From: a virus
DNA length: 64,000 nt
Virus record (IMG/VR): IMGVR_UViG_3300033153_006744
Span: 26,495-90,494 of that record
Direction: 5' to 3' (one strand)
Below are positions 18,392-46,064 of the stretch, piece by piece. The notes under the pieces were generated by a model that saw only the letters and a list, made by a program, of their open reading frames with translations, ran no database searches and had not been told where the DNA came from. Position 1 is the stretch's first letter, and each line of letters opens with the position of its first letter. The position numbers and the translations under genes were made by a program.

Positions 18392-18418
18392 TAATCATTC
18401 TCCATAATTATTTAATTT

Positions 18419-18874: not shown

Positions 18875-18888
18875 TTTAAACTCCTATA

Positions 18889-20475: not shown

Positions 20476-20484
20476 TTATTCCTC

Positions 20485-20760
20485 CTATTTGATTACTTTA
20501 AACTCATTTTCTTTAAGTTTAATTTTTAATTTATCTAGAGATCCTATTAAAATTGTTGTCTTATTGTATTCTATCTTTAACATTTTAAAGGATTTATTTT
20601 TAAAGAATCCTGTTGTAATATTATATTCCCATCCATCACCTTCAACTATTTTCATTTCACTTTTAGGTACATTCTTTTTTTCTCTTTCTTTCTTGTCTTT
20701 TTTTTCTTGTTTAGCAAGCTCTTCTTTTATTGTAATTTCCTTTTTCTTTTTTTTAGTCAT
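20485..20760 (-). CDS. Small Lys-rich tail-region protein of unknown function
   Basis: A 91-residue protein from the ATG at 20760, preceded by GGAGAG. An in-frame ATG at 20775 lacks a ribosome binding site. The first 35 residues are almost entirely Lys and Glu (KKKKKEITIKEELAKQEKKD). The rest is a small beta-like domain with EGDGWEYNITTG and TILIGSLDKLKIKL. It sits between the tail-completion gene and the sheath gene with an 8-base overlap to the former. No family recognised. A small assembly factor would fit its place. Confidence 0.6.
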   Translation of the reverse strand: MTKKKKKEITIKEELAKQEKKDKKEREKKNVPKSEMKIVEGDGWEYNITTGFFKNKSFKMLKIEYNKTTILIGSLDKLKIKLKENEFKVIK

Positions 20761-21667
20761 CTTTTCTCTCCACATTTAATGTTATATCTGTAATTTCATC
20801 ATAAACATCTTTTATAACTTTATCGTAACTTGTAATAGGAATTCTATATATAATTATATCTAAAGAATCTGAAGGATAATTATCATTTCCAACTGTAAAG
20901 TTATTATATTGCTCTATTTCCCATTCGTAATCAATGTCATCATGATTAAAAGAAGGCATCTTATTTCTTAAATCATATATTATCCTATTCTTTAACCTTA
21001 AAACTATCTGTGGAGATTGAGACCAAAACATTATTCTTAATGTTATATCTTGTAGTCTTTCTCTAGCATTCTTATATAAGTCATTGACCCCCTGAACATC
21101 ATCAGCTGGCAAAAACATCACATCGGCTGGAGTTACGCCAACCAAGCTAACCACAGAGCCAGTATCACTCATTTTGCTTAACTCTTGTCCAGATGTTTCA
21201 CTCATATAATCTTGGCTTCTATATAAAAAAGTTTCATGTAACCAAAATGTTTTTAGTTTCTTTATGAAAGTTTTTATTATATTTTCAACATCACACGCTT
21301 GTTCATTTTCATCAGGCATTTCGTAAGTCCAAGAGTCTGTTTCTGTTACTGTTTCACCTGGTATAGGATCTAAATTGTCATCTAAGTTAGTAATGATTAT
21401 ATCTCCAAGCAAAGGAAACTTAGAAGGAGCACCTTTTTCATCTGTCCATGGGTCAGCATCATAAGCTGGCGTCCATATTCGCAACAAAGCACCATCTTCT
21501 AACACATCAACTCTATCAGCAACAATGCCTTGAAACTTAACTTCAACAACATGTGGATTGCTGCCCACTGCAGCTATTCTGAAATTAGTGCCTATAATAT
21601 AGACAACATCTTTTCCAAATGTAAGTCCAGAAGGTTGTGAAATACTTGTAAAAGTTGGAACAGCCAT
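20753..21667 (-). CDS. Tail completion/terminator protein with N-terminal IPT/TIG-like domain
   Basis: A 304-residue protein. The N-terminal 115 residues look like an Ig-type IPT/TIG domain (SISQPSGLTFGKDVVYIIGTNF... VEVKFQGIVADRV). The C-terminal half has features of neck or tail-terminator proteins (LQDITLRIMFWSQSPQIVLRL... IIYDLRNKMPSFN... YPSDSLDIIIYRIPI). It sits between the gpS/virion-morphogenesis gene and the sheath gene, the expected terminator slot. Its start shares TAATG with the preceding stop. The fusion of a decoration-type domain to a terminator is a small oddity. Family call by pattern and order. Confidence 0.55.
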   Translation of the reverse strand: MAVPTFTSISQPSGLTFGKDVVYIIGTNFRIAAVGSNPHVVEVKFQGIVADRVDVLEDGALLRIWTPAYDADPWTDEKGAPSKFPLLGDIIITNLDDNLDPIPGETVTETDSWTYEMPDENEQACDVENIIKTFIKKLKTFWLHETFLYRSQDYMSETSGQELSKMSDTGSVVSLVGVTPADVMFLPADDVQGVNDLYKNARERLQDITLRIMFWSQSPQIVLRLKNRIIYDLRNKMPSFNHDDIDYEWEIEQYNNFTVGNDNYPSDSLDIIIYRIPITSYDKVIKDVYDEITDITLNVERKDD

Positions 21668-22206
21668 TACCTTAAACCCTTAGCTTTTAAAGCTCTTAAA
21701 GCCTGCGTTGTAAACAAATGCTCTATATTACCTTTCATCTTTCGATAAATAGGGGCAATAAAAGGTCTAGCAGGGATATTTATTATTTTAAATCTGCCAT
21801 CTTCGCCTTTTCTCATAATTGTTTTACCGTGTTCATGAACCCAGGCTATATTAACCATCTTACCTTTTTCGCCATCAGAGTCATATTCTTCATTTCTATG
21901 TATTCCAACAAAAAAAGAGCCTCTTCCTGTACTAGTTAGCCTAATGCTTCTAAGCAATTGCCCATATCTTATTAAAGCTTTGGTTCCCTTAAAGCCCTCT
22001 GCCCTTCTTCTTGCTATTGTTGCTTTAGCTAAGGGTTTAAATCTTTCATTATTGGGGGCTTGACTTCTTATTCCAAGTTTTATTTCTTTTACGGAAAACA
22101 TTGCTAAACGTCTTAACACTAAATGCATAACTGGTTTAGCTTGTTTATATATTGTATTTAAAGCCGTTGACGCCTTATCCCAATCACCAAAAACATTTTT
22201 ACCCAT
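21667..22206 (-). CDS. Virion morphogenesis/tail completion protein (gpS/Mu gpG type)
   Basis: A 179-residue basic protein from the ATG at 22206 (GGGGG site 6 bases upstream). The GTG at 22218 is rejected because it falls at the predicted transcription start. Diagnostic elements of the phage virion-morphogenesis family are present: FKPLAKATIARRRAEGFKG, LIRYGQLLRSIRL, FFVGIHRNEEY, VNIAWVHEHG and IINIPARPFIAPI. This family completes the tail top and the head-tail joint. It is the first tail gene after the cargo module and has its own promoter. Confidence 0.8.
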   Translation of the reverse strand: MGKNVFGDWDKASTALNTIYKQAKPVMHLVLRRLAMFSVKEIKLGIRSQAPNNERFKPLAKATIARRRAEGFKGTKALIRYGQLLRSIRLTSTGRGSFFVGIHRNEEYDSDGEKGKMVNIAWVHEHGKTIMRKGEDGRFKIINIPARPFIAPIYRKMKGNIEHLFTTQALRALKAKGLR

Positions 22207-22225
22207 ATTAACCCCCACTTTTTAC

Positions 22226-22254
22226 ATTATGCCAGTGAAATGCTAAAAAGTAAA
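22226..22254 (-). promoter_or_regulatory. Extended -10 promoter for the tail operon
   Basis: Minus strand: -35 TTTACT (22249-22254), 17-bp spacer ending in TGG, -10 CATAAT (22226-22231). Transcription would begin near 22219, leaving a leader of only about 12 bases before the ATG at 22206. It belongs to the same class as the tape-measure promoter at 9427. Confidence 0.65.
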
Positions 22255-22312
22255 GCAATAATTTAATTAAGTTGTTTTTTTTATTGAATTATATTTAGAA
22301 ATTGTTGTGAGA

Positions 22313-22897
22313 TTATTCTTTTTTGAAAAGTCCAAGTATCTTGCCAGAGTTCTCGTGTAAATACATCGCAAAGCTAGAACTAAGGATTCCTTCCATGAGA
22401 GCAGGTAACACAGCCATACCATTACCAACGCTATATAATATTGTAGCAGTTATACCTAACACAGACACTACTAAAACTTTTATAACAGGTTTTTGTTTAG
22501 ACCAAAATCCGCCAAACGCCTTAAGTCTCAAAATAGATAGCAATAAAAATATTAAAGACCCAATACCTAATAAGTATTTTTTCTCTTTGAATAAATTGTA
22601 TGTCTCCTTGCCATCATCAATAATTTCTTCTTTAGTTGTGTTTTTACTTAGGTCAACATCTTTTAGTTCAGAGCTAACTCCAGCAGCCTTTAATTCATCT
22701 GATTTTTCTTTGTTTTCTTTTTCAACTTCTTTAATATCTTTTGTGATATTAGCAGGAAGTTTCTTTTCAACCTTGGCTTCAATCTCAAGCTCTTTGTTTT
22801 CTAAGATAGGCTTTGGTACACCCTGTGCAAAAACATCAAATGTAAATGCAACAAAAAATACAGTTACAAGTGTCATAAAATAAAAAGTTCTCTTCAT
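22313..22897 (-). CDS. Exported membrane protein, possible holin-like or envelope protein
   Basis: A 194-residue protein with a signal peptide (MKRTFYFMTLVTVFFVAF, likely cleaved after VFAQG, residue about 25). Then comes a charged helical periplasmic part (residues about 30-105, many EKK/KEVEKENKEK stretches), and two or three membrane helices near the C-terminus (LLGIGSLIFLLLSILRL; VLVVSVLGITATILYSVG; LPALMEGILSS). The C-terminus GLFKKE would be cytoplasmic. It sits at the downstream end of the cargo module, just before the tail promoter. A holin-type role is possible by topology, but there is no adjacent endolysin. Confidence 0.6.
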   Translation of the reverse strand: MKRTFYFMTLVTVFFVAFTFDVFAQGVPKPILENKELEIEAKVEKKLPANITKDIKEVEKENKEKSDELKAAGVSSELKDVDLSKNTTKEEIIDDGKETYNLFKEKKYLLGIGSLIFLLLSILRLKAFGGFWSKQKPVIKVLVVSVLGITATILYSVGNGMAVLPALMEGILSSSFAMYLHENSGKILGLFKKE

Positions 22898-22911
22898 TTT
22901 TTTCTCCTAAT

Positions 22912-23325
22912 TTAATTAAATAATTGTTTAACTTCGTCATTTTCTTTTTCGTCAAAGTTAAATATTAGTAAATAGTTATTGTTAATATATAATTCAAAGT
23001 TAAAAATAACATTGTTACGCTTAACTTCTAAATTAAAGCCAAAAACATCAGCCTCGCTTTTGGTAAAGCCTAGTTCGCTTAAGTCTGCTTCTATATCTTG
23101 CAGCCTTAACAGCCTTTCTTTTTCTAGGTTATTAGATCTAGTTGCTTGATCATGTGACATATCTGTCATGCTTTCTGGTTTTGATAGAAAGCCTTTTATT
23201 ATATCTTTGTTATAGCTATATATTAAAAGACATATATTGCCTATTAGTATGTAATTATCTTTTTCTTTAATGTATGCCTTCTTAAGCATGTGTTCTAAGT
23301 TATCAACAGTTCTTTCTTTTGTCAT
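22912..23325 (-). CDS. Unknown protein downstream of the csf1-like gene
   Basis: Unrecognised 137-residue protein. The start is taken as the ATG at 23325 (MTKERTVDNLEHML) because it has GGAGATTTT in front and a promoter lies just upstream. The N-terminal half is helical with the hydrophobic NYILIGNICLLIYSYN. The middle is coiled coil (NLEKERLLRLQDIEADLSE). The C-terminus has beta strands (VIFNFELYINNNYLLIFNF). It could be an accessory of the CRISPR-like module or unrelated. An AcrIC/Acr-like role cannot be judged from sequence. Confidence 0.55.
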   Translation of the reverse strand: MTKERTVDNLEHMLKKAYIKEKDNYILIGNICLLIYSYNKDIIKGFLSKPESMTDMSHDQATRSNNLEKERLLRLQDIEADLSELGFTKSEADVFGFNLEVKRNNVIFNFELYINNNYLLIFNFDEKENDEVKQLFN

Positions 23326-23350
23326 AAAATCTCCGTAAATTAACATTGTA

Positions 23351-23379
23351 TATATAGCATTTGTGCAATAAAAAAGCAA
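23351..23379 (-). promoter_or_regulatory. Promoter between csf1-like gene and its downstream neighbour
   Basis: Minus strand: -35 TTGCTT (23374-23379), 17-bp spacer, -10 TATATA (23351-23356), preceded by TGC as an extended -10. It fills the short gap between the stop at 23380 and the start at 23325, with a GGAG site in the leader. Confidence 0.5.
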
Positions 23380-24042
23380 TTATTGTTTATCTTTGTGGTT
23401 GTTTAGCCTTATAAATGACAACACAACTAATAATTGCAACTCACTAAACTTAGAAAAAAACATCTTATTGTCATTGTATTTACTTAATCCGAACTTTCCG
23501 ATAACATTAAACTTTATACTTTTGCCACTTATTATTTCAGTTTTTGAGAACTTAAAGGCAATCATTTCCTTAGCTGTTTCATGAATTTCAAGCATATCAT
23601 CAAGATTTATTTTCACAAGCCCTTTGTCAGTGCCAATTGTTATTGAATCTTTATTATAATTAACCTTGCAAAAAAAGAAGAAATGTTTTTTATACGAGAA
23701 ATTAACACCAACCATAAATGGGCTTTTCTCCTTTTTGATTAAATCAAAGAGAACACTCCTGTTTTTAGTTGTTATAAACTCCTTTTCTGTAGCAAAAAAG
23801 TTAACTTGCCTTAATGTTTGGTTTTCTTTTAAGTTTTTGGTTTTAAACAAAGAAGAGCAAGTTAAGCATAATGTTTTTGAGTTATTCTTAAAAATATAGA
23901 AGTCATTAAAGTTAGCTGATACCGTATTCTTTATTAAGTATCCATTACTTACTTCGCAATTACACAATGCGCAGGTTCCTTTTTCTTTTCCATCTTCGTT
24001 TTTAATTATATGTTTATCTAGTATGTTAACTATATCTTTCAT
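23380..24042 (-). CDS. Csf1-like zinc-binding protein of a type IV CRISPR-Cas-like module
   Basis: A 220-residue protein proposed to be a Csf1 homologue, the Cas8-like subunit that defines type IV CRISPR-Cas. Seen: two CxxC pairs near the N-terminus (C24-C27 and C59-C62), the second as CLTCSSLF; then KKEKSPFMVGVNFSYKKH followed by beta strands and VKINLDDMLEI. Csf1 proteins characteristically combine an N-terminal four-Cys zinc site with a downstream 'PF......s..KH' strand. The gene overlaps the csf3-like gene by 17 bp and ends a four-gene operon. Similarity is weak enough that a structural comparison is needed, but context raises the odds. Alternative: an unrelated zinc-ribbon protein. Confidence 0.55.
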   Translation of the reverse strand: MKDIVNILDKHIIKNEDGKEKGTCALCNCEVSNGYLIKNTVSANFNDFYIFKNNSKTLCLTCSSLFKTKNLKENQTLRQVNFFATEKEFITTKNRSVLFDLIKKEKSPFMVGVNFSYKKHFFFFCKVNYNKDSITIGTDKGLVKINLDDMLEIHETAKEMIAFKFSKTEIISGKSIKFNVIGKFGLSKYNDNKMFFSKFSELQLLVVLSFIRLNNHKDKQ

Positions 24043-24724
24043 TGTTCTCCTTTAGTTGTTTTGGGATTAATATATTTTCTTGATATTCACCTAGCCAATA
24101 TGGCGCACGATAAGACCCATAATCATTTACATAAGAGAAATCTCTATCTTTAAATATGTTATCAGCCATCACCTTAAGTGGCAGTGGTCTAAATAATAAA
24201 TATTTTTGCTCTTCTTTTTCGGCAATCGTAATCTCAAAACTTGAAAACCAACCGAACCCAGCCTTAACTTTTTTCCCAATCCCAACAATATAATCTACTA
24301 GTTCTTTTATCTTGTTTTTATCTCCTATAAAATAAAAAACTATATTATCAACAGAATTTATAACAATAGGCATGTCATAGCTTTTATAATATCCACTACC
24401 TATATTTACCTTTCTTTTGGCTTTTCCAAAATAACTAAGAAAATCATGTCTTGAATTCCATCGTTTCCGCCACTTGTCAATTGATATTTCTTTTTTCTCT
24501 ATTATTCCATAAGAACAAAGATAAAAACCTAATTTGTGTTTTTTTATGGGGATTAATTTTTCTATATTCTTATTTATTTCGGAACCATTCGAGGTTTTAA
24601 TGTCGGTGTTTTTTCTAAAATATTTCTGATAAACTGCATAAGAAATAATGCTGTCAAAAATAGGTATATCTGTATAAGCAATTGGAGATGACATTTTAAA
24701 TTTTATTTTATAAGTTATATCCAT
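24026..24724 (-). CDS. Csf3-like (Cas5-type RAMP) protein
   Basis: A 232-residue protein with a RAMP layout. The N-terminal strand and helix is SSPIAYTDIPIFDSIISYAV, matching the 'P...D.PI.LD..L.Y' start of Csf3. Next come a basic stretch (KRKVNIGSGYYKSYDMPIV), a ferredoxin-like segment (FYFIGDKNKIKELVDYI), and a glycine-rich loop GIGKKVKAGFGWF at residues 148-160, the hallmark of Cas5/Cas6-type RAMPs. It continues with FEITIAE and a LLFRPLPLK segment. Csf3 would bind the 5' handle of the guide RNA. The gene overlaps ibrB-like by 10 bp and csf1-like by 17 bp. Another RAMP subfamily is possible. Confidence 0.6.
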   Translation of the reverse strand: MDITYKIKFKMSSPIAYTDIPIFDSIISYAVYQKYFRKNTDIKTSNGSEINKNIEKLIPIKKHKLGFYLCSYGIIEKKEISIDKWRKRWNSRHDFLSYFGKAKRKVNIGSGYYKSYDMPIVINSVDNIVFYFIGDKNKIKELVDYIVGIGKKVKAGFGWFSSFEITIAEKEEQKYLLFRPLPLKVMADNIFKDRDFSYVNDYGSYRAPYWLGEYQENILIPKQLKENNERYS

Positions 24725-25338
24725 GATTTTGAGAACTCCTTATTTCTAAACAAGTTTCCGAGTCCAGTAAATTGCTTTAACCTTAAGACCTCGTCCTTAT
24801 CCATCCCTAGTTGTTCACTTATCTTCTTGTCACTCCAGCCCATAAAATAAAGCTCTTCAACTATTTCACTCATAGATTGTATGCCATGCGTTCCTCTCGC
24901 CCTATTGTGTCTAATTGTACTAGCCATTCTTTCCTTTAAACTTTTTTCTATAACCACTAGTGGCAAATAGCCCTTGGTTCGTGTTTTTATGTCATCATAT
25001 TCCTTTCCAATTCTATTCCTGTGAAATCCATCAACAACAACATACTTATCTTGCTCTTTATCATAAAAAGATACAATTGGTTGAGTATATCCATCTTCTT
25101 TTATTGACCTATATAATAATTGCATTTCTGGAGGTGCAACCTTGTTTGGGTTGTAATTATTAGCCTTAACCCTATCTGCTTTTATCCACAAAACATTGCT
25201 GACTGGCTCTTCTTTAAGTGGGTTAATTTCGTTTAGTTTAGAATAAATGTCATTTAATAATTCTATCTTGTCATCTTGTTTTCTTATCTTCTTTATGTTG
25301 AAAATAAGTTCGTCAACCTTATCTAATAATTCTTTCAT
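24715..25338 (-). CDS. ibrB: IbrB-like ParB-domain protein
   Basis: A 207-residue ParB N-terminal-domain protein. Residues 100-107 give VVDGFHRN, the ParB/Srx nucleotide-binding motif. It is followed by HNRARGTHG (residues 144-152), the diagnostic IbrB element, and a helix-turn-helix (DKKISEQLGMDKDEVLRLKQ, residues 170-189). IbrB was described with IbrA in E. coli as a regulator pair of immunoglobulin-binding proteins. ParB-like domains can bind CTP and DNA; activity here is unknown. Its ATG overlaps the ibrA-like stop (ATGA), the conserved pairing. Confidence 0.8.
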   Translation of the reverse strand: MKELLDKVDELIFNIKKIRKQDDKIELLNDIYSKLNEINPLKEEPVSNVLWIKADRVKANNYNPNKVAPPEMQLLYRSIKEDGYTQPIVSFYDKEQDKYVVVDGFHRNRIGKEYDDIKTRTKGYLPLVVIEKSLKERMASTIRHNRARGTHGIQSMSEIVEELYFMGWSDKKISEQLGMDKDEVLRLKQFTGLGNLFRNKEFSKSWI

Positions 25339-26552
25339 TCTCCTAGCTCCTCTTTCATTTTATAATATTTTTCGTATTGATTTTTAGTTTGACCAAACGA
25401 CAAACTTTTACAGATTTTATCGTTCTTTAATATAACTTTAGCAAGCCTCCGCCATGATGGAGCCTTTTTAGAGCTTTCAAGTTTTTTGTCTGCTTCATCT
25501 GGAATTCCATCTGGATAACCATTTTTAGACCACCACCGAATAAATATCTTGAATTTTTGCCCATACCACTCTGCTTCAAATTTTGGAAGAGTTGCCATTA
25601 GAAAATTAACATAACTTTCCCATGTGTGATTTTTTGGCAATATTACCTTGTTGTTTCCTAATAAAAAGCTTTTGCAATATATGTTGCCAAAATTAGCTCC
25701 AGACACTCTATCAACAATTCTAGACCACGTTTCAGGTTCACACTGTCTAAATAAATTAAGACCTTTTCTTTGGTCATCTCCGTATGGCTGACATATTCTT
25801 GCTTCATGTATTGATAACCCCTGCATGTACATGAAATCATAAATTTTATTGTATGTATAGCTCTCGTTTCCAACAGAAACCCATATATCTTTAGTCTTCC
25901 AGTCATAAATAGGGTAAAAATTAAAAACATTCTCAACAATTTGAGTTGTCCACATTTTATCTTTATATATTTTTTTCTTCGTATTTTTAATGGTTCTATA
26001 TCTATTTAAACTTTCATCTGATCTTATTCCAACTCCACAGGCAATTTTTTCTTTTCCAACTTTGAACCACTCTGCAAACCTAACAACTAATTCTTCAAAC
26101 TCTATTCCTCTATGAAACCATTTCTCCCATTCTTTGGGCATGTTATTTTCGTTTATAACATATTTTGAATTAGGCATCGGCCTAACCCATTTATCTTCAT
26201 TTTCTTTATCCCAACAAATCCATTGTGGCTGGTAAACACTTACTGCATTTCTTAAATTTAAAGGCAAGCATAGCCAATAACCATCAATATCTTTATTGTT
26301 GAAAATTTCTTCAACATGCTTTATTGTAGACTTATACTGAGCCTCTAAGTCAATGAAAAGTATTTTTATTGGTATTTTGTTCTTTTTTTTCGCAATTTCA
26401 AGTGCTAGTTGAACCATTACACTAGAGTCTTTTCCGCCAGAAAAAGAAAAGCAAATCTCATCTTTGTCAAAGTTGTCAAAAATAAAATTAAGTCTTTCTA
26501 TTGCCTTGTCCCAAACATTTACTTTTGAATATGTTTTTGATTCACTGTTCAT
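25335..26552 (-). CDS. ibrA: IbrA-like PP-loop (PAPS reductase superfamily) protein
   Basis: A 405-residue IbrA-type protein of the DUF3440 kind. An ATP pyrophosphatase P-loop, CFSFSGGKDSSVMVQLAL, is at residues 34-51 with SGGKDS at 38-43, followed by ILFIDLEAQYKSTI. FYPIYDWKTKDIW and EARICQPYGDDQRKGLNLFR are the further conserved blocks of this family. The C-terminal WKYK-like IFIRWWSKNGYPDGIPDEAD is also typical. The domain activates substrates by adenylation or handles PAPS; the biological substrate is not known. It is the first gene after an early-type promoter, with AAGGAGG. Confidence 0.83.
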   Translation of the reverse strand: MNSESKTYSKVNVWDKAIERLNFIFDNFDKDEICFSFSGGKDSSVMVQLALEIAKKKNKIPIKILFIDLEAQYKSTIKHVEEIFNNKDIDGYWLCLPLNLRNAVSVYQPQWICWDKENEDKWVRPMPNSKYVINENNMPKEWEKWFHRGIEFEELVVRFAEWFKVGKEKIACGVGIRSDESLNRYRTIKNTKKKIYKDKMWTTQIVENVFNFYPIYDWKTKDIWVSVGNESYTYNKIYDFMYMQGLSIHEARICQPYGDDQRKGLNLFRQCEPETWSRIVDRVSGANFGNIYCKSFLLGNNKVILPKNHTWESYVNFLMATLPKFEAEWYGQKFKIFIRWWSKNGYPDGIPDEADKKLESSKKAPSWRRLAKVILKNDKICKSLSFGQTKNQYEKYYKMKEELGE

Positions 26553-26573
26553 TCTACCTCCTTAGTTACTTAC

Positions 26574-26602
26574 ACTGTAACACATTTTAAACTAAATGTC
26601 AA
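26574..26602 (-). promoter_or_regulatory. Early-type promoter of ibrA-ibrB-csf3-csf1
   Basis: Minus strand: -35 TTGACA (26597-26602), 17-bp spacer, -10 TACAGT (26574-26579), in the 50-bp gap before the ibrA-like ATG at 26552. It shares the spacer pattern (TTTAGTTTAAAATGTG) of the other early promoters but lacks the leader hairpin. Confidence 0.65.
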
Positions 26603-27361
26603 CTATGTATATGCTTTTATTTCTGGATGAAAACTTAACATGAGATTGTATTGTTTTTTATAGTAATACTTTAACCATGAAAACTGACCTATTGTTGCAG
26701 CCGTTGGATCTACAAACCAAGATATTCTTATTTTAGCTGGATCATCTGTAAATCTTGTTTTATTATATGCCGGGTGTAGCAATTTATCTAATTTTCTACT
26801 GTAAATATATGCAAAAACATCATCCCCAGTTAAATCACAAATCGGATAAAACTGATATATCTTATTTTTCTTAGAATAAAATAATTTACCCATATGTTTT
26901 ATTAAATTTTCCCTTCTTTTGCTTTCTTCTTTTCTTATCCCAATCAAGGCAATTTTATAATCATTGTCCTGTTGGAAGTTTCTAATGGGCGTCATCATTG
27001 CCTTTTCAAACGCATAATTCTTGCACCCAGCATCATAAAAAGCCTTCTTTTTTGCATATTCATCTAGTATGTCAATTGGGGATTTTACTACATTTATTGT
27101 CTTATTGTGGTGTTTTTCCGCTAGTTTTATAATTCCGTAGCTCTCGGGTAGCTCATACCAAGAATCATGAAACATTATGTCTAAATTAGGGTTTGCCTCT
27201 AATGCAATATCTAGCATTACTAAACTATCCTTGCCAGTGCTATATGAAATAGAACCCTTTGTATTTCTTGTTTCTTTTTCAATAGAGCTCTTAACCAGCT
27301 CTATTTTTCCCTTAAACTCGTCTAGCTCTGCATACAACAAATAATATTCTTTATTTTTCAT
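26603..27361 (-). CDS. CysH-like phosphoadenosine phosphosulfate reductase-fold protein
   Basis: A 252-residue PP-loop protein from the ATG at 27361 (GGAG about 10 bases upstream; a TTG at 27376 is an alternative). The P-loop is ISYSTGKDSLVMLDIALEA (STGKDS at residues 41-46). Next come IMFHDSWYELPESYG, IALIGIRKEESKRRENL and YQFYPICDLTGDDVFAYI, all standard CysH-fold blocks. The KRT-ECGLH catalytic tail of assimilatory CysH is not present, so sulfate assimilation is unlikely. CysH-like genes are regular companions of type IV-B CRISPR loci. It overlaps the csf2-like gene by 11 bp, which binds the two genes into one unit. Confidence 0.82.
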   Translation of the reverse strand: MKNKEYYLLYAELDEFKGKIELVKSSIEKETRNTKGSISYSTGKDSLVMLDIALEANPNLDIMFHDSWYELPESYGIIKLAEKHHNKTINVVKSPIDILDEYAKKKAFYDAGCKNYAFEKAMMTPIRNFQQDNDYKIALIGIRKEESKRRENLIKHMGKLFYSKKNKIYQFYPICDLTGDDVFAYIYSRKLDKLLHPAYNKTRFTDDPAKIRISWFVDPTAATIGQFSWLKYYYKKQYNLMLSFHPEIKAYT

Positions 27362-28550
27362 TTTCTTTAACTCCAATAAAAGCTAGGATATCTTTTTTGT
27401 TTTTCTCTATATGCCTTAAGTATAAATTATTTGCATTTTCAGGAATTGTCAACTCTGACAAATCTATTTCAGATGAACCAGTTGCAAACATTCCGCCAAT
27501 AAACGGATTTTCTTTAAAAAGAATTAATGCATGCCAGAAGGCCGAAACAGATAATTCATTAAAATCCATCATTCTAAAGCCATGATTGAACTGAGTTCCT
27601 TTTGCAAAAACTTCATATTCATACTTCATATGAGTTGGGTTTTCATCTTTTTTGTCTTTTATCGCCTTTATTGATATATTCTTTTCATCTTTAGAGCTAT
27701 CTTTTCTGCTTTGAAAAATCATGTCCAAGTAAGACCAGAATGAGTTAATTCCTGTTTTCAACTCCACGCATTTAGGATATGCAAAACCAACAGATAATTG
27801 ACCTTCTATTGTCATGTTGCCTATTGCACTGCCAAAAACACCAAGCATTGGAATGCTATCTATTAGCTTTTCTCTTTTTTCTAAGTCCTCATATAGGGTA
27901 GACTCGGTCAAGGCTCCGCCAGTAAACAAAATATGATATAATTGTTTATCTATTTTTTTACATCCAACTCTTTTTAAGAAATCATACATCGCTAATCTTC
28001 TTAAGACGCCCCTAATGCTATTTCCAGATATACAAGGAATCAGCTCAAATGTTTTATTGTATGTTTTAAGTTTCTCTTTTTTTACATCTAATTTATGGTC
28101 TTTATCCTTGCTCTTCATTCTTAATAAAACAGTTATAGTGTGAGCCTCATCTCTAACTTTTGACAAAAACTCAACATCTGTTATTTGTTGTAGATAATTG
28201 AATGTTTTATCTTTTAAATCAGGCATTCTAACACCACATAAATCTGCAAATACTTCAAAAAATTGGAATCTATTTGAAGATGTTGCAGACCTTTTAATTT
28301 TTGAATATAGCTCATCCCATATTCCCATTAATCTCTTTCCTTTTATTTTGCTAAAGTCTATCTTAGAGTATATACTATAACAAACATCAACAATGATATT
28401 TCTAACATCATCATCTGAAAACGAGGTTAAAAAGTTCTCGTTTTTAACCATTATTTTCTGTCTCCTAAGCAGCTTTGTTGTTCCGTCTGTCTTATCGGAA
28501 CCCGTGTGAAGGAATGTTGTTCCAGTGAAATTGTAGTCAACTTTAATCAT
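27351..28550 (-). CDS. Csf2-like (Cas7-type RAMP) backbone protein
   Basis: A 399-residue protein with a Cas7/Csf2 signature. FELIPCISGNSIRGVLRRLA (residues 168-187) is the classic RAMP 'ISGN.lRG.lRR' motif. LGVFGSAIGNMTIEGQLSVG (236-255) matches the conserved 'lFG...G...i.g.l.vg' stretch. EVFAKGTQFNHGF (313-325) and ENPFIGGMFATGSSEIDL (347-364) are the 'GT.F' and 'iGG..a.G.G.v.l' blocks that follow. The length suits Csf2 with one insertion (about residues 285-305, Lys/Asp-rich). Such subunits polymerise along guide RNA. It is directly followed by a cysH-like gene, as in type IV-B. Alternative: another Cas7-family RAMP. Confidence 0.68.
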   Translation of the reverse strand: MIKVDYNFTGTTFLHTGSDKTDGTTKLLRRQKIMVKNENFLTSFSDDDVRNIIVDVCYSIYSKIDFSKIKGKRLMGIWDELYSKIKRSATSSNRFQFFEVFADLCGVRMPDLKDKTFNYLQQITDVEFLSKVRDEAHTITVLLRMKSKDKDHKLDVKKEKLKTYNKTFELIPCISGNSIRGVLRRLAMYDFLKRVGCKKIDKQLYHILFTGGALTESTLYEDLEKREKLIDSIPMLGVFGSAIGNMTIEGQLSVGFAYPKCVELKTGINSFWSYLDMIFQSRKDSSKDEKNISIKAIKDKKDENPTHMKYEYEVFAKGTQFNHGFRMMDFNELSVSAFWHALILFKENPFIGGMFATGSSEIDLSELTIPENANNLYLRHIEKNKKDILAFIGVKENEK

Positions 28551-28605
28551 GTTTACTCCTTATTTAAGTTTAAGCATTGGGCTAATGCCTTTTGATTTTC
28601 CTATA

Positions 28606-29034
28606 CTATTCTTTTAAAAAGTTTAAATGTGCATTCATTGCAAATCTTGAGCTAAAAGAAGTTTTATCTTTATTTATTTTGCCTAATTCGTTTACCCTTG
28701 CAACAGTAAGAATAAAATTAGAGTTAGATTTTCTAAATTTATTAAAATAAAAAACCTCTTCGGTTTCGTCATTTTTGAACATATGGAATTCTTCCTGTAA
28801 TCTTTCTAGCTCAGTTTTTTTAGACAATATTTTTAACAAGAAAATTCCGTCCTCTTTTAAAACAAGTTCAACGTTAAATTTGTCTTCTAGTTCTTCTTTC
28901 TCTACTCTAGTACATTCAGCTGCAATGCACTCAAATTTTTTAGCATTATTACTTAGAACAACTAAATCTTTGTTAGCTTTAAATATAGTTAAGTTTTTAA
29001 AGTTTTTTCTAATTTCATTATATAATTTTTTCAT
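28606..29034 (-). CDS. Unknown first gene of the cargo operon
   Basis: A 142-residue protein without a recognisable family. The N-terminus is basic and helical (MKKLYNEIRKNFKNL). A beta-type middle follows (FNVELVLKEDGIFLLKILS), then a charged helix (KTELERLQEEFHMFKND). A short beta tail ends in LTVARVNELGKI, then AMNAHLNFL. It lies under the strongest early-type promoter and 55 bp before the csf2-like gene; the gap contains a GCATT-AGCCC-AATGC hairpin and AAGGAG. Its size equals that of a Cas11 small subunit, but the mixed alpha/beta pattern argues against a Cas11 helical bundle. Confidence 0.55.
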   Translation of the reverse strand: MKKLYNEIRKNFKNLTIFKANKDLVVLSNNAKKFECIAAECTRVEKEELEDKFNVELVLKEDGIFLLKILSKKTELERLQEEFHMFKNDETEEVFYFNKFRKSNSNFILTVARVNELGKINKDKTSFSSRFAMNAHLNFLKE

Positions 29035-29060
29035 CTTAATCTCCTTTATTAATTTCTTTA

Positions 29061-29119
29061 GTTAAGACCCTTTCTTAACTCTATACATACATTATAATGC
29101 ATTTAAGAATAAATGTCAA
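29061..29119 (-). promoter_or_regulatory. Early-type promoter with leader hairpin, cargo operon
   Basis: Minus strand: consensus -35 TTGACA (29114-29119), 17-bp spacer, consensus -10 TATAAT (29091-29096). A hairpin GTTAAG-AAAGGGT-CTTAAC (29061-29079) begins about five bases after the predicted start near 29084. The AAAGGAG site for the gene at 29034 follows. The whole leader is nearly identical to that before 62116. Confidence 0.75.
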
Positions 29120-29197
29120 GCGAAAAGTAAATATAATTTAAGATAAAACAAAATCATGCGTAAGCTATTGTTATGATGCATTAAATGAAGTGATTTT

Positions 29198-29677
29198 TTA
29201 CGCTATGTCTTTTTTATTGAAAGATATTTCGACTAAGTTTCGTGTTGGATTAACAATGTCTATGCCAAAACCTGCATCAGATATATGCATTACAAATAAT
29301 TCAATTGTGCCAAAAGTTTTAACTGTTCTGCCAAACTTATCCTCTATTCTAACAAGCCTATCACCTATTCTTAAATCTATATTGTTGTCTGAATTAAGCA
29401 ACCCAGCCATTTCTATATCTCTATAGTGATGCAACAACATTAACATAGGCTTTATTTCTTGCCCTTTGTCCGTTATGATTGTTTTTTTAGGATTTTCATA
29501 AATCTGGCATCGCATCTTTATTTCTTCAGCTTCTTCAATTGTTTTAAATTTGGCAAGCCTACCGTCGTCAACCAATACAGGAGTTCCAAGCATAGGGTCA
29601 ACATTAGCAGTGTCATATTCAGTTTCATCTACTCTTTTATAAACAGCTTTGAATTGAAATATTAAGTCACCACGCAT
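29198..29677 (-). CDS. Neck/head-completion protein candidate
   Basis: A 159-residue protein at the end of the head gene row. It begins GDLIFQFKAVYKRVDETEY and has a beta-rich middle with IKMRCQIYENPKKTIITDKG and NIDLRIGDRLVRIEDKFG. This is the small-barrel layout typical of head-tail joining proteins (gp9/gp10-like or neck). No family can be fixed from sequence. It overlaps nothing and starts 1 bp after the upstream stop. It is the last virion gene before the cargo module, and the rest of the neck genes resume at 22206. Confidence 0.5.
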   Translation of the reverse strand: MRGDLIFQFKAVYKRVDETEYDTANVDPMLGTPVLVDDGRLAKFKTIEEAEEIKMRCQIYENPKKTIITDKGQEIKPMLMLLHHYRDIEMAGLLNSDNNIDLRIGDRLVRIEDKFGRTVKTFGTIELFVMHISDAGFGIDIVNPTRNLVEISFNKKDIA

Positions 29678-29678
29678 G

Positions 29679-30641
29679 TCAACACACCCTTGGAGGAGTC
29701 ATATATTTACCTAAGATAGCGTCAATAACCAGGTCTCCAGTGAAAACAGAAACATCTTCAGTATTATATTCAACTTCTTGGTCTTTAGTTTTCATTCTTT
29801 TCACATAACCAGTAACAATCTCATCATCTAAAACAGAAAATAGTTTACTCATTAATGTTAACCTGAGACAAGCTCTTTTAATCTGAGAAGGAATTAAACC
29901 CCAGGGAGCGCTACCCTCTTGAACTACCCCAAAAATTCCCTCAATAGATATTCGCTTGTAATTTTCTAGGTCAACATTATAGATTTCTATTTCTAATATT
30001 CTTCTAGCATCAGTTAGTCCAATTAGATTTAAATTATGAACTATTGCATCTTCATCATCAAAGAGAGCCTTAGAGTTGTCGTCATCCCAGAACTGACTAA
30101 TAAAAATACATGGATAATTTAAAAATAAAGTATTATAATCGCTTTCTATGTTGTCATAGATTAAATGTCTAGCTCCAAAAAACCAGCCTGTAATCTGCTC
30201 TATTTCTTGCATAGAAGCCTTAATTCCATCTAATATCTGTTGATTAGTTAAAGTTGTTGTTGGTATCTCAGCTTTTATATCCAAAACACCGCAATAAGCA
30301 TTTTCAACATTTTCATCTATGTCATCTAAAACTTCAAAGTATTCAAATTTTGTTCTAATATTATCAGGCCTATACTTATCTCCAACGCTATCAAGAAATT
30401 TATATGTATATATTATTTTGTATTTTCCTTCAGTAGCTGGAGCAGTAAAAGGTATCTGATATATATAGTCAGCTATTTCAGAACTTGTTAAAATAACTGG
30501 TGTCTCAGCAATAACTTCTGTTCCTGCTGAATCTTCTACCTTAAAGCTTAAATAATCAAGCTCTGGTCTTGTCCCTCCAGAAAGGACAGGACAAAACCAA
30601 AACATATCTGTTGTAGCTGTATCAGATTTAATAATTCTCAT
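29679..30641 (-). CDS. Head-tail connector/neck protein with N-terminal Ig-like domain
   Basis: A 320-residue protein. The N-terminal 110 residues read as an Ig-like beta domain (LDYLSFKVEDSAGTEVIAET... GKYKIIYTYKFLDSVGDK), rare in connectors. The remainder looks like a gp6/gp15-type connector (LTNQQILDGIKASMQEIEQI, a helix pair). ISIEGIFGVVQEGSAPWG with IPSQIKRACLRLTLMSKL forms the typical 'G..G......P..i..a...l....' end. Position two genes after the capsid supports adaptor function at the head vertex. Confidence 0.5.
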   Translation of the reverse strand: MRIIKSDTATTDMFWFCPVLSGGTRPELDYLSFKVEDSAGTEVIAETPVILTSSEIADYIYQIPFTAPATEGKYKIIYTYKFLDSVGDKYRPDNIRTKFEYFEVLDDIDENVENAYCGVLDIKAEIPTTTLTNQQILDGIKASMQEIEQITGWFFGARHLIYDNIESDYNTLFLNYPCIFISQFWDDDNSKALFDDEDAIVHNLNLIGLTDARRILEIEIYNVDLENYKRISIEGIFGVVQEGSAPWGLIPSQIKRACLRLTLMSKLFSVLDDEIVTGYVKRMKTKDQEVEYNTEDVSVFTGDLVIDAILGKYMTPPRVC

Positions 30642-30644
30642 TTT

Positions 30645-31148
30645 TTATTCCATTAAGTCAGCTAAGAATTTAGAACCTTCAATGCTATCACCCATTTTTC
30701 TTTGTCTTTTCATTCTTGTTTGGTCAAAGAACCCAACATCTAAGCTATTAACATCAACAGGATCTTTATCCCTAAGCTCTAAGCTTTGATTTTGTTTCCT
30801 AAGAACTTCTTCAACTGTAAATGCAAAGTCAAAGAATTGATCTACATATGCTCCTGTGCCTATTTTCTTGTTCTTAAGCTCTTCTTCATAGAACCACTTA
30901 GGAATCTTATACCATTTAGGCAAAGCACCAGTAAGCAAGTCAGAACCCCTAAAAATAACAGCTCCAGATCTCATCCACCTTTGGAAAGGATAACGAATCG
31001 GATCATAAACTTTCATTCTACAGAAATACACTTCTTTTTTAGGAAGCTTCTTTTCTTCTGCTTTTGTAACTTTCATTTCTCTTTTTACTTTTACTTCAGC
31101 AACAGCTTTTTTAACTTCTTTCACTGTTTTTTTTCTAGCTCTAGCCAT
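30645..31148 (-). CDS. Basic head-module protein of unknown function
   Basis: A 167-residue protein, strongly basic for the first 45 residues (ARARKKTVKEVKKAVAEVKV). A folded part follows with YFCRMKVYDPIRYPFQRWMR, GSDLLTGALPKWYKIPKWF and a C-terminal helical tail. The compact aromatic core suggests a small virion protein, probably a decoration or head-completion factor with a disordered N-terminal arm that could contact DNA or capsid. It follows the capsid gene directly (AGGAGTTAAC site). No family recognised. Confidence 0.5.
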   Translation of the reverse strand: MARARKKTVKEVKKAVAEVKVKREMKVTKAEEKKLPKKEVYFCRMKVYDPIRYPFQRWMRSGAVIFRGSDLLTGALPKWYKIPKWFYEEELKNKKIGTGAYVDQFFDFAFTVEEVLRKQNQSLELRDKDPVDVNSLDVGFFDQTRMKRQRKMGDSIEGSKFLADLME

Positions 31149-31160
31149 GTTAACTCCTAT

Positions 31161-32132
31161 TTATATTGTAACTCCATCAATTAAAACATTAGCTGGTTCT
31201 TCATTTAATTGCAAGTCTAATTTATATCTAGCAACAATTTTAAATGTTCCAGTATCAATGTCTTTGTCTGTTTCAACTGTAATGTTTTTCAAAATACCCA
31301 AGAAACAATTCATTTTATTTAATAAAACAACATCTGTTTCTGTTCCACCACCAAGCGTAATAGGCATATAATCAGATTGAATAACAGGAATACCATTGAT
31401 AATCATGCCATCAACACCTTTTAACAATGTAGCGTCGCCAAGTTGTGTTTCTCTTCCTTGCATTTCAGTCATATTTGTTAATTTAGTTCTTGCAGACTGG
31501 ATATAAAGTAAGTCTTGAGGTTTTAGATATTTTGGATCTAACAACTTTAAGATATTAGCATGTTCTTCTAAATCGAAATCAGCTATTGTTCCAGTGTTTG
31601 TTGTTATGATTTTCCTTAAACCATCCATAGTTTTTAACAATAGATAATCTGGATGCCCAGGATCTGTTGCAGTGTCACCATTAAGAATTAAATTATCAAT
31701 ATCTCTAGCAATGGCTTCAATAAGTTGATTTGTAACTGTTGTAATAAATCCATCTTTTTCAATGTTTTCTTCTATGTCTTCATAAGATAGAAATGTTGTT
31801 GCTCTTAATCTTTTTACATTAAATGTAACCTTTGATAAAGATGGTGATCTTCTGTTAGAAGACGTTGACCCTGTATATTCCTCATCTTCAACTGACACTG
31901 AACCAGTAAAACCCATTACAGGTATAGATTGTGTAATTGCCTTTAACGGAATAGTTCTAATCATTTTAGCTAAAACTGTTTTCTCAACTATTTTAGCCAT
32001 AAATTTTTGTAAATTATCTTGTTTAATTTCTCCACCAGCTGTTTCAATGTCACCAATTGACAAGTCAGCTTTCGTAACGAAATGTCCATTAATTAACTCA
32101 TTTGCTTTTGCTATCAAAACTTCTCTATTCAT
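31161..32132 (-). CDS. Major capsid protein (HK97-fold)
   Basis: A 323-residue HK97-type capsid protein. The N-arm and E-loop region shows KFMAKIVEKTVLAKMIRTIP, IPVMGFTGSVSVEDEEYTG and FNVKRLRATTFLSYEDIEEN. The spine-helix part FITTVTNQLIEAIARDIDN precedes LNGDTATDPGHPDYLLLKTM. The P/A-domain carries LKPQDLLYIQSARTKLTNM, GVDGMIINGIPVIQSDYMP and KDIDTGTFKIVARYKLDL. This is the order of HK97 folds of the PBSX/XkdG kind. It lies just after the protease and scaffold genes. A strong AGGAGGAAGG site suits high expression. Confidence 0.82.
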   Translation of the reverse strand: MNREVLIAKANELINGHFVTKADLSIGDIETAGGEIKQDNLQKFMAKIVEKTVLAKMIRTIPLKAITQSIPVMGFTGSVSVEDEEYTGSTSSNRRSPSLSKVTFNVKRLRATTFLSYEDIEENIEKDGFITTVTNQLIEAIARDIDNLILNGDTATDPGHPDYLLLKTMDGLRKIITTNTGTIADFDLEEHANILKLLDPKYLKPQDLLYIQSARTKLTNMTEMQGRETQLGDATLLKGVDGMIINGIPVIQSDYMPITLGGGTETDVVLLNKMNCFLGILKNITVETDKDIDTGTFKIVARYKLDLQLNEEPANVLIDGVTI

Positions 32133-32167
32133 AACCTTCCTCCTACTAATAAACCCTATTAATAATA

Positions 32168-32920
32168 TTAACCCTTATATTCGTCGCCTAAAATTTGCGG
32201 TAAATGATCACCAATACTCATTGTTCCCGTCATAATAAATCCTTCACTTTCTTTTTTTGCAACTACATTTTTTTTATCAACAGGAGCTGCGTTATCAGCT
32301 TTGCTTAATGCTGAAGGATTAGATTTTGTTAAATCAATTTTCTTGCTTAATTCTTCATTTTGTTTAGTTAAAGCTTCAATTTTTTCTTTTAATTCTGCTT
32401 TTTCTTTGTCTTCTTCCGTCTTTACAACAGGAGCAACCGTTTTTTCGTCTTTTTCTTTCAATTCGTCAAAGTTTTTAAGTAACCCGTCAATCTTTTCATT
32501 CATCATTTTAAATGCTACTTCAGGGTCAAAAGCTTTAGGTTCAGTTTCTGCTTTTACTGCAACATCAGCCTTAGGTTTATCTAATGCACCTTCTAGCTCT
32601 TTAATCATGCCATGTACAGCATCAACAGCGTTCTCTTTTTTGTCATCTATAACTTTCTCAATGTTTGCTTTTGTTAAAACTTCTTTTGCAAGACCTAGTG
32701 CTTGTGCAAATTCAATTTCAGTTCCTTTATTTTCTTTAAAGTCTTTAAAGGCTTTTTGCAACGCTTTCGCTGCATTATCTAACATGTTTTCAAAAAAACT
32801 ATCTTTGGGCTCAGTTCCTTTGTCACCTTTTACAAGTGCAAAATTTTCTCCATTAGCTCCTTTATCTACAAAAGAAACTTCAAGACCCAACAATTTCATT
32901 AACTCTTTAAAGTTTTCCAT
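32168..32920 (-). CDS. Capsid scaffold protein (XkdF/GPO-like, coiled coil)
   Basis: A 250-residue acidic and helical protein. The N-terminus GLEVSFVDKGANGENFALVK carries the 'V..VdkGAN...f.l.K' motif found in XkdF-type protease/scaffold proteins. The rest is Lys/Glu-rich with coiled coils (KALQKAFKDFKENKGTE; KAELKEKIEALTKQNEELSK) and a flexible tail. It lies between protease and capsid genes, as scaffolds do, and has the size of an internal core protein that the neighbouring protease would degrade. It shares the motif with the protease because such genes are often one ORF; here they are separate. Confidence 0.65.
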   Translation of the reverse strand: MENFKELMKLLGLEVSFVDKGANGENFALVKGDKGTEPKDSFFENMLDNAAKALQKAFKDFKENKGTEIEFAQALGLAKEVLTKANIEKVIDDKKENAVDAVHGMIKELEGALDKPKADVAVKAETEPKAFDPEVAFKMMNEKIDGLLKNFDELKEKDEKTVAPVVKTEEDKEKAELKEKIEALTKQNEELSKKIDLTKSNPSALSKADNAAPVDKKNVVAKKESEGFIMTGTMSIGDHLPQILGDEYKG

Positions 32921-32929
32921 TTCTTACTC

Positions 32930-34906: not shown

Positions 34907-34914
34907 TTTAACTC

Positions 34915-37414: not shown

Positions 37415-37415
37415 T

Positions 37416-38457: not shown

Positions 38458-38458
38458 T

Positions 38459-44585: not shown

Positions 44586-44644
44586 GCCAAGACCTTTTCT
44601 TAACTTTATACGTATACTATAATCTATTCTTAAACTAATGTCAA
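44586..44644 (-). promoter_or_regulatory. Early-type promoter with leader hairpin (before 44562)
   Basis: Minus strand: -35 TTGACA (44639-44644), 17-bp spacer, -10 TATAGT (44616-44621). Leader hairpin GTTAAG-AAAAGGT-CTTGGC at 44586-44604, where two G-U pairs replace A-U pairs of the sister hairpins. Confidence 0.72.
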
Positions 44645-44666
44645 GCAAAAAGTAAAGTTTTTTGAA

Positions 44667-46032: not shown

Positions 46033-46064
46033 GTAAAATGTGAAGAAAAATTAAATAAATTATA

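What the first reader, a model, noticed from the sequence alone, without database searches (positions are those of the whole stretch)
23380..28550. Phage-borne, array-less type IV-B-like CRISPR module interleaved with CysH and IbrA/IbrB
Three proteins carry type IV CRISPR signatures: a Cas7/Csf2-type protein (ISGNSIRG plus GT.F and iGG blocks), a Cas5/Csf3-type RAMP with glycine loop, and a Csf1-type protein with CxxC pairs 32 residues apart. They are joined by overlapping starts to a CysH-like protein and an IbrA/IbrB pair. Known: type IV-B loci encode Csf1-3 and CysH and lack arrays, Cas6 and DinG. Inferred: this is a IV-B-like complex combined with IbrAB, carried inside a virion gene cluster. 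I know of no phage module with this exact content. It may bind host or phage RNA, control competitors, or modify nucleic acid through PAPS-type chemistry.
Basis: partly seen in the sequence, partly recalled or inferred. Interest (0 to 1): 0.95.

Follow-up and report, generated by a model that had tools for sequence, protein, structure and literature searches.

The report
Phage CRISPR-like complex with swappable enzymes
A bacterial virus carries a stripped-down CRISPR complex of the poorly understood type IV-B, with one subunit built into another and with enzymes that may chemically mark DNA or RNA, and relatives show that these enzymes are exchanged while the complex stays the same.

Summary
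Window 23380-28550 (minus strand) is a compact operon in a tailed-phage contig encoding Csf1, Csf3, a PP-loop CysH-like protein, IbrA, IbrB and Csf2, set between head and tail genes. No CRISPR array and no Cas6, Cas1 or DinG-type helicase was found in the 90.5-kb record. Eleven of 48 related IMG/VR loci share the insertion; the non-redundant ones form one clade with the window. IbrAB is probably no accident: IbrA lies beside csf genes in 15 sequence clusters (70% identity) from viral contigs, haloarchaeal plasmids and bacterial genomes. In one tight group Csf1, Cas11, Csf2 and Csf3 stay similar while what lies between csf2 and csf3 is exchanged: CysH, IbrA-IbrB-CysH, or a SAM-methyltransferase-fold protein. 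The window has cysH-ibrA-ibrB in that slot, behind a perfect sigma-70 promoter. Best reading: an array-less type IV-B RNP serving as a chassis for exchangeable nucleotide-chemistry enzymes that modify nucleic acid. Parts are shown by sequence; chemistry, target and role are inferred. New variant of a known kind.

The parts
27351..28550 (-). csf2 (Cas7-like backbone), 399 aa, with a Cas11 small-subunit domain inserted at about residues 44-160 (window about 28071-28421)
   Evidence: PADLOC Csf2_0_IV 1e-49 on residues 157-392 and Cas11_1_IV 1e-7 on residues 55-164; alignments; AlphaFold model pLDDT 84 with helices 46-148 between RAMP strands; 7jhy_a Z 17.8; insert profile against separate Cas11 ORFs: hhalign 99.0%, E 6e-18
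26603..27361 (-). cysH-like (CasCysH type): PP-loop ATP pyrophosphatase without a conserved cysteine
   Evidence: PF01507 2e-18; S-x-G-K-D-S loop, no Cys column in 14 sequences; start chosen
25335..26552 (-). ibrA: PAPS-reductase-like PP-loop domain + DUF3440
   Evidence: PF11922 1e-37, PF01507 2e-13; phrog_2302 8e-92
24715..25338 (-). ibrB: ParB-like partner of ibrA
   Evidence: phrog_2159 1e-73; ParB_N 5e-5, below Pfam cut-off; IbrB profile found in 77 of 80 control IbrA loci
24026..24724 (-). csf3 (Cas5-like RAMP)
   Evidence: TIGR03116 4e-22; Csf3_0_IV 9e-38; profile of 13 Csf3 against PDB 7xfz_B Csf3 1e-15
23380..24042 (-). csf1 (large-subunit-like, CxxC...CxxC)
   Evidence: TIGR03114 8e-12; Csf1_0_IV 9e-27; profile of 14 Csf1 against 8rc3_G Csf1 8e-7
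28606..29034 (-). 142-aa protein of unknown function at the head of the operon
   Evidence: no family match at E<=0.01; 55 nt upstream of csf2
29091..29119 (-). perfect sigma-70 consensus promoter TTGACA-17-TATAAT upstream of the operon; part of a promoter+leader repeat found at four other places in the window
22912..23379 (-). 155-aa ORF directly after csf1, unknown; possibly the last gene of the operon
   Evidence: no match at E<=0.01

Best explanation
This is a divergent type IV-B CRISPR effector operon used by a tailed phage. Csf2, with Cas11 fused in as an inserted domain, should polymerise on short RNA, so that backbone and small-subunit belly come as one 1:1 protein; Csf3 and Csf1 would cap the ends. 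With no array, Cas6 or nuclease found, the complex would take its RNA from the infected cell. The enzymes encoded between csf2 and csf3 (CysH, IbrA, IbrB) would do the work: PP-loop ATP pyrophosphatases activate a nucleic-acid group by adenylation, with ParB-like IbrB as a nucleotide-dependent partner, so that nucleic acid bound or base-paired by the RNP is chemically modified. Relatives that put a SAM-methyltransferase-fold protein in the same slot suggest that the general function is RNP-directed modification by an exchangeable enzyme. For the phage this would mark self, or disable competitors or host transcripts, from a host-type promoter. Shown: gene identities, Cas11 insertion, slot exchange, recurrent IbrAB linkage, promoter sequence. 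Inferred: RNP assembly, RNA source, adenylation, target, timing, benefit.
For: Gene identities. Fold of Csf2. Cas11 insertion; nine of nine separate ORFs tested from the comparison set are type IV Cas11 by PADLOC (3e-19 to 3e-37); the 11 fused rows (window and ten loci) are one clade (100/100) in a tree built without the insert columns. Slot exchange: in L049, L053, L056-L060 the core proteins are 54-92% identical, while the slot holds CysH (28-77% identical among themselves), IbrA-IbrB-CysH (L059) or an MTase-like gene (L057, L058); blastn similarity of L059 and L057 stops at 10765 (csf2 ends at 10771) and resumes at 13221 (csf3 start). The MTase-like slot protein has a class I SAM-methyltransferase fold (pLDDT 88; 862 PDB chains at E<=0.001, most of the 50 shown named methyltransferases); L042's copy is above Pfam's RrnaAD cut-off (3e-6) and weakly like KsgA/Erm/Taw2. 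In L054 IbrA-IbrB stands in place of CysH. IbrAB linkage: csf genes in 14 of 80 loci of one IbrA subfamily in IMG/VR and in 5 of 29 in GTDB genomes; 27 csf-adjacent IbrA form 15 clusters at 70% identity; the IbrAB label changes 10 times on the Csf2 tree. Promoter. Type IV-B RNP on heterogeneous RNA: PMC7937560 (passages). That the RNP may recruit CasCysH to modify nucleic acid was proposed in PMC8175902 (passages); the slot exchange is new support for it.
Against: No biochemistry. IbrAB is also a common stand-alone phage pair: csf genes in 0 of 80 loci of the IbrA subfamily nearest to the window's (some of these contigs are only 4-6 kb), IbrA in 131 of 50,697 phages and 593 of 72,556 plasmids (E<=1e-10), so the window's copy could be a passenger. 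5 of the 11 loci without CysH have no recognised replacement (L039, L064, L065, L067, L068); at least some are cut by contig ends. Nothing shows that the RNP contacts the enzymes. Neither the profile of the inserts nor that of separate Cas11 ORFs finds a solved Cas11 chain by sequence, and the fold search was of the whole protein, so the insert's fold was not searched alone. The slot gene in L028 is only weakly TGT-like (phrog_887 0.0067; no Pfam or NCBIfam hit). Slot enzymes could instead make small molecules. Promoter-like sites in 18000-37500 are not in excess overall (84 found, 91.5 +- 12.1 in shuffles), and a second 12-of-12 site lies at 33009-32982.
Confidence: 0.45

Rival explanations
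1. RNA sponge or anti-CRISPR decoy: the Csf2-Cas11 filament soaks up host crRNAs or other small RNAs and blunts RNA-guided host defence; the enzymes only stabilise or tag the bound RNA.
For: A type IV-B complex bound heterogeneous RNA, and a sponge role is discussed (PMC7937560, passages). No array, Cas6, Cas1 or DinG-type helicase found in the record. A promoter of host type would suit early expression.
Against: Does not explain why an enzyme slot is kept and exchanged as a cassette, nor why a relative, L001, has kept a true Cas6 without an array in its 153.5-kb contig.
Confidence: 0.2
2. Two unrelated phage cargo modules side by side: the IV-B operon is one moron, IbrAB a separate DNA-modification or regulatory pair that landed in it; there is no functional coupling.
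For: IbrAB is common without csf genes: 0 of 80 nearest IbrA loci have them. The rows nearest to the window's IbrA in the tree are such stand-alone ones. The closest csf relative, L001, has no DUF3440 match in its 153.5-kb contig.
Against: Recurrence in 15 IbrA clusters, interleaving inside the operon with overlaps of 4 to 26 nt as listed, IbrAB in place of CysH in L054 and sharp slot boundaries in L059.
Confidence: 0.2
3. Signalling: target or RNA binding by the RNP activates CysH/IbrA to make an adenylated small molecule that triggers a response, as cyclic oligoadenylate does in type III.
For: PP-loop enzymes adenylate substrates; second messengers are one option named in PMC8175902 (passages). 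Type IV is seen as derived from type III (PMC11656645, PMC8730458, passages).
Against: No sensor-effector domain (CARF, SAVED or similar) was recognised in the eight proteins scanned. A methyltransferase-fold protein in the same slot does not fit a nucleotide messenger.
Confidence: 0.1
4. Remnant: a decaying plasmid-type IV-B operon trapped in a phage.
For: NCBIfam scores are below the naming cut-offs.
Against: The six ORFs are intact and have ribosome-site-like sequences before their starts, PP-loop and CxxC motifs are kept, a perfect promoter precedes, and eleven other viral loci keep the same fusion.
Confidence: 0.03

Closest known systems
Type IV-B Csf complex of Mycobacterium sp. JS623 (PDB 7jhy; PMC7937560, passages)
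   Same: Csf1, Csf2, Csf3, Cas11, no array; Csf2 model aligns over 217 of 228 residues; CysH is the usual companion of the subtype
   Different: There cas11 is a separate gene and no IbrAB is described in the passages read; here Cas11 is inserted in Csf2, cysH-ibrA-ibrB fill the csf2-csf3 slot, and the carrier is a phage
Type IV-B of Fuxiviridae, viruses of Bathyarchaeia (PMC10848311, passages)
   Same: Virus-borne IV-B with CysH and no adaptation module
   Different: Archaeal virus with a mini-array; IbrA and ParB do not occur in its main text; no fusion mentioned in the passages read
Type IV-C complex (PDB 11fs: Cas7c, Cas5c, Cas10IVc; names from the tables)
   Same: The Csf2-group profile matches Cas7c better (2e-29) than the IV-B Csf2 7jhy (2.5e-20)
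   Different: IV-C has a Cas10-like large subunit; here Csf1 is the small CxxC type and CysH is present
Type III-E Cas7-11 (gRAMP) (PMC11127173, passages)
   Same: Cas7 and Cas11 united in one polypeptide
   Different: That protein has four Cas7-like domains and one Cas11-like domain (passage; that Cas11 lies between whole Cas7 domains is recalled); here Cas11 is inserted inside a single Cas7 domain that should still polymerise
Stand-alone phage IbrA/IbrB pairs (phrog_2302/phrog_2159)
   Same: Same two-gene unit; IbrA 45-54% identical
   Different: No csf genes in 80 of 80 control loci
Dnd/Ssp and Dpd DNA-modification systems (PMC12839542, passages)
   Same: Use PAPS-reductase-like enzymes (DndC, SspD) or a TGT (DpdA), and have ParB-like proteins (DndB, a proposed regulator; DpdB, an ATPase)
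   Different: Only weak profile similarity to DndC; their partner genes were not searched for here

Membership tests
Type IV-B CRISPR | csf1, csf2, csf3 core | tested here: met
Type IV-B CRISPR | cas11-like small subunit | tested here: met
   present as a domain inside Csf2, not as a gene
Type IV-B CRISPR | CysH-like accessory with PP-loop and no catalytic cysteine | tested here: met
Type IV-B CRISPR | no CRISPR array, no Cas6, no DinG, no adaptation genes | tested here: met
   PF01881; PF13307; PF01867; repeats; Csf5, Cas2 and Cas4 were not searched; the record is a fragment
Type IV-B CRISPR | Csf2 nearer to IV-B than to other type IV references | tested here: inconclusive
   PDB Cas7c of IV-C scores higher than IV-B Csf2; no reference tree with IV-A to IV-E was possible
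Type IV-B CRISPR | RNP filament on non-CRISPR RNA | not testable with these tools
   needs purification
Type IV-C CRISPR | Cas10-like large subunit with HD domain | tested here: not met
   the operon's large subunit is a 220-aa Csf1; its profile gives Cas10IVc only 0.012; Cas10 was not searched over the whole record
Type III-E Cas7-11 | several Cas7 domains in one chain with a Cas11 domain | tested here: not met
   one Cas7 domain only
IbrA/IbrB pair | PAPS-reductase + DUF3440 protein next to a ParB-like protein | tested here: met
Dnd-type phosphorothioation | DndC with its cysteines plus DndA/DndD/DndE | tested here: inconclusive
   only weak DndC similarity; partner genes not searched across the record

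The most novel reading that the evidence does not exclude
Type IV-B is not a failed immune system but an RNA-charged nucleic-acid modification platform: one conserved RNP chassis whose chemistry is set by an exchangeable cassette between csf2 and csf3 (CysH; IbrA-IbrB with or without a DPPW-type methyltransferase; a SAM-methyltransferase-fold protein; perhaps a TGT-like enzyme), used by phages and plasmids to mark or disable nucleic acids of self or rivals.
Probability: 0.35. Interest if true: 0.92.

Novelty: new variant of a known kind. Interest (0 to 1): 0.74.

Why it matters
What type IV-B complexes do is open, and CysH was named as the likely key (PMC7937560, PMC8175902, passages). The exchangeable slot gives a direct genetic test: keep the chassis, change or delete the enzyme, and look for the modified molecule. 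The methyltransferase-fold variants predict a simple product (a methyl group) that can be measured without knowing the PP-loop chemistry. The Csf2-Cas11 fusion gives a small complex with fixed stoichiometry for structural work, and shows a way, different from Cas7-11, of uniting the two filaments.

Tried and rejected
Cas6 in many IV-B loci: my own profiles drifted and called Csf3 'Cas6'; NCBI also labels one such protein Cas6 (L007). PADLOC shows that the six tested (L007, L032, L037, L020, L038, L044) are Csf3 (6e-41 to 1e-67). The only true Cas6 I saw is in L001; most loci were not scanned for Cas6 with curated models.

Mini-arrays: repeated 72-nt units in L001, L013 and L014; those in L001 lie in ORFs of repeated protein motifs, so I took all as coding repeats. 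No mini-array was found.

TGT/DpdA in L028's slot: only a weak phrog_887 match, no Pfam or NCBIfam match; not claimed.

Linear Cas11-Csf2 fusion in L150 and L190: my Cas11 profile matches the N-terminal parts (6e-12 and 2e-9), but PADLOC's Cas11 models do not match L190 at E<=0.01 (L150 was not given to that call). Kept as a note only.

Chance for IbrAB: kept as a rival. A rough background (131 of 50,697 phages) would give about 0.1 IbrA in 48 viral csf loci; 6 of 48 were seen (L031, L038, L039, L040, L054, L059), 4 if the near-identical L038-L040 count once. The collections differ, so this is only an order of magnitude.

Classification against IV-A to IV-E references was not possible: two key papers (PMC7038947, PMC8658065) are not held, so I cannot exclude that IbrAB or slot variants were noted there. 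Literature searches that showed no report of IbrA/IbrB with type IV CRISPR: (listings only, IbrA + CRISPR + type IV as whole words, listed 5 papers, none of them on type IV CRISPR by title), and term searches inside PMC10848311, PMC8175902 and PMC8813620.

Host: not determined. Nearest capsid matches in named phages are about 30% identical and of mixed hosts; the sheath has none.

A scan of GTDB genomes with the A6 Csf2 alignment (two fused, one unfused sequence) gave 46 pattern matches and no relative.

Full report
What is there. The window is part of a 90,494-base IMG/VR virus record. On the minus strand, 28550 to 23380, six genes follow one another with overlaps or short gaps: csf2, cysH, ibrA, ibrB, csf3, csf1. 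Profile searches support each assignment. A 142-aa gene of unknown function (28606-29034) heads the operon, and a perfect TTGACA-17-TATAAT promoter lies just upstream at 29119-29091. Allowing one mismatch, the window has 5 such sites against 1.4 expected (0 of 100 shuffles reached 5). The promoter with its leader is repeated at four other places. A looser scan of 18000-37500 shows no excess of promoter-like sites (84 against 91.5 +- 12.1), and one other perfect site, with a 16-nt spacer, at 33009-32982. To either side lie virion genes: capsid and portal upstream, neck, sheath and tube downstream. So the operon looks like a cargo unit with its own host-type promoter set into the virion gene cluster. 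When it is expressed is inference.

The hidden subunit. PADLOC's two type IV Cas11 models match residues 48-164 of the same protein whose residues 157-392 match Csf2; L001 gives the same picture. Against six unfused Csf2 proteins the insert sits between the first strand region (LLRRQK) and ISGNSIRG, where the others have only a few residues. AlphaFold places six helices (46-148) between RAMP strands (E2-10 and E30-42 before, E162-172 after; pLDDT 84, pTM 0.78). The model aligns with type IV-B Csf2 (7jhy_a) from residue 2 to 392 over 217 residues, Z 17.8. A profile of ten inserts against a profile of eleven separate Cas11 ORFs gives 99.0% probability, E 6e-18. I had found those ORFs with a profile that included two of the inserts, so I checked nine of the eleven with PADLOC: nine of nine are type IV Cas11, 3e-19 to 3e-37. 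Sequence profiles of neither set find a solved Cas11 chain. The insertion occurs in 11 of the 48 IMG/VR loci and in the window. In a tree made without the insert columns, the window and ten of them (L023 left out as a near-copy) form one clade with 100/100 support, and the window is nearest to L022, L024 and L001. Two further loci, L150 and L190, may carry Cas11 as an N-terminal extension of Csf2 (my profile: 6e-12 and 2e-9; PADLOC's Cas11 models do not confirm L190).

The enzyme slot. The set (48 viral loci, the window, and six named plasmid or phage loci: 55) has CysH in 44. Of the 11 without it, four have a 154-166-aa gene between csf2 and csf3 (L029, L042, L057, L058), one has IbrA-IbrB there (L054), one has a 219-aa gene of uncertain kind (L028), and five show no replacement (L039, L064, L065, L067, L068), at least some of them cut by contig ends. 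The four-member family (alignment) has a class I SAM-methyltransferase fold (pLDDT 88; most of the 50 best PDB matches are named methyltransferases, many of RNA), and one member passes Pfam's RrnaAD cut-off, while the other three have weak matches or none. The clearest case is the group L049, L053, L056-L060. Csf1, Cas11, Csf2 and Csf3 are 54-92% identical, whereas the slot holds CysH of different lineages (28-77% identical), IbrA-IbrB-CysH (L059), or the methyltransferase-like gene (L057, L058). DNA similarity between L059 and L057 ends 6 bases before the end of csf2 and resumes at the csf3 start; L059 and L060 behave likewise, and L059 and L056 share in addition 182 bases around the start of cysH. 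A second, more diverged group (L042 against L045, L047, L051; Csf2 54-66% identical) repeats the pattern. The window's slot holds cysH-ibrA-ibrB.

IbrAB is a recurrent partner. IbrA with IbrB stands in or beside csf operons in 10 of the 55 loci, among them three haloarchaeal plasmids. Two scans serve as controls. With the IbrA subfamily of the window, the 80 best loci of at least 576 relatives: csf genes in 0 of 80, IbrB in 77 of 80. With a second IbrA subfamily, the 80 best of 98: csf genes in 14 of 80 (12 of 78 newly fetched, plus L038 and L039; two of the 12 are contigs already seen), IbrB in 78 of the 78, and a match to the DPPW-type methyltransferase profile in 54 of the 78, some weak. 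In GTDB genomes 5 of 29 loci of that subfamily have csf genes (one is the plasmid already seen as L020), including the isolate Caldicoprobacter algeriensis. The 27 csf-adjacent IbrA fall into 15 clusters at 70% identity. On the Csf2 tree the IbrAB label changes 10 times (some long branches, and rows were partly chosen for having IbrA). On the IbrA tree the csf label needs 4 changes, at least 3 forced by supported branches, which could also be gains and losses. Repeated recruitment, in different gene orders, is better supported than one accident; but the window's own IbrA subfamily is mostly stand-alone.

Chemistry. In 14 CysH proteins of these loci the PP-loop is kept (S46, G48, K49, S51 invariant, D50 nearly so), and no column has Cys in half or more of the rows. 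This fits an adenylating ATP pyrophosphatase rather than a reductase, as PMC8175902 argued for CasCysH; that paper also proposed that the RNP recruits CasCysH to modify nucleic acid (passages). IbrA+IbrB is a PAPS-reductase-like enzyme with a ParB-like partner. In known DNA-modification systems a PAPS-reductase-like DndC occurs with ParB-superfamily DndB (a proposed regulator), and the ParB-like ATPase DpdB with the TGT DpdA (PMC12839542, passages). In heimdallarchaeal and bacterial viruses IbrA/IbrB are also described as prophage transcriptional regulators (PMC8813620, passages). Replacement of CysH by a methyltransferase-fold protein points to modification of nucleic acid as the common theme. 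This last step is inference.

Novelty. Type IV systems in phages, prophages and archaeal viruses are known (PMC10848311, PMC11656645, PMC8730458, passages). I found no text that reports Cas11 inserted in Csf2, IbrAB as partner, or exchange of the slot enzyme (searches listed under Tried and rejected); two central papers could not be read. On subtype: by gene content this is IV-B; by Csf2 sequence alone the IV-C Cas7c structure scores higher, so the clade may lie between the two.

Verdict. Observation confirmed; main interpretation supported and extended. Identity of the module: about 0.95. Functional coupling of IbrAB with the RNP: about 0.65. RNP-directed modification: about 0.4.

Noticed in passing
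L001 8683-9375: The closest relative phage has a true Cas6 (TIGR01877 above cut-off, PF01881 1e-17) directly before csf1, yet no CRISPR array was found in its 153.5-kb contig.
   Followed up: partly
L150 3-1283; L190 5557-6852: Possible second, linear Cas11-Csf2 fusion with Cas11 at the N-terminus (not confirmed by PADLOC for L190).
   Followed up: partly
L020 10595-11320, L031 14905-15552, L038 6480-7136 and 54 of 78 loci: A DPPW-type methyltransferase often lies beside the second IbrA/IbrB subfamily, with or without csf genes; looks like a three-gene modification unit.
   Followed up: partly
L020 11825-12610; L038 7105-7908: Unknown protein family directly upstream of IbrA in csf loci; the L038 member has no PHROG match.
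   Followed up: no
window 61323-61436 and 63887-64000: Identical 114-nt stretches, the second at the very end of the record: perhaps a repeat at which the assembly stopped.
   Followed up: no
window 37762-39859: ParB-like 238-aa ORF overlapping a ParB_N + N6_N4 methyltransferase fusion: a second possible DNA-modification pair in the phage.
   Followed up: no
window 29087-29142, 44612-44667, 46000-46055, 57575-57630, 62170-62225: Five copies of a promoter and leader repeat, four of them in the right half of the window.
   Followed up: partly
L034 6963-7721; L041 6310-6717: Glycosyltransferase-like (PF00535, 2e-4, below cut-off) and SpoU-like (8e-4, below cut-off) genes between csf3 and cysH in other viral IV-B loci.
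   Followed up: no
L007 6740-7483: NCBI annotation calls this plasmid protein Cas6; profiles place it as Csf3.
   Followed up: yes
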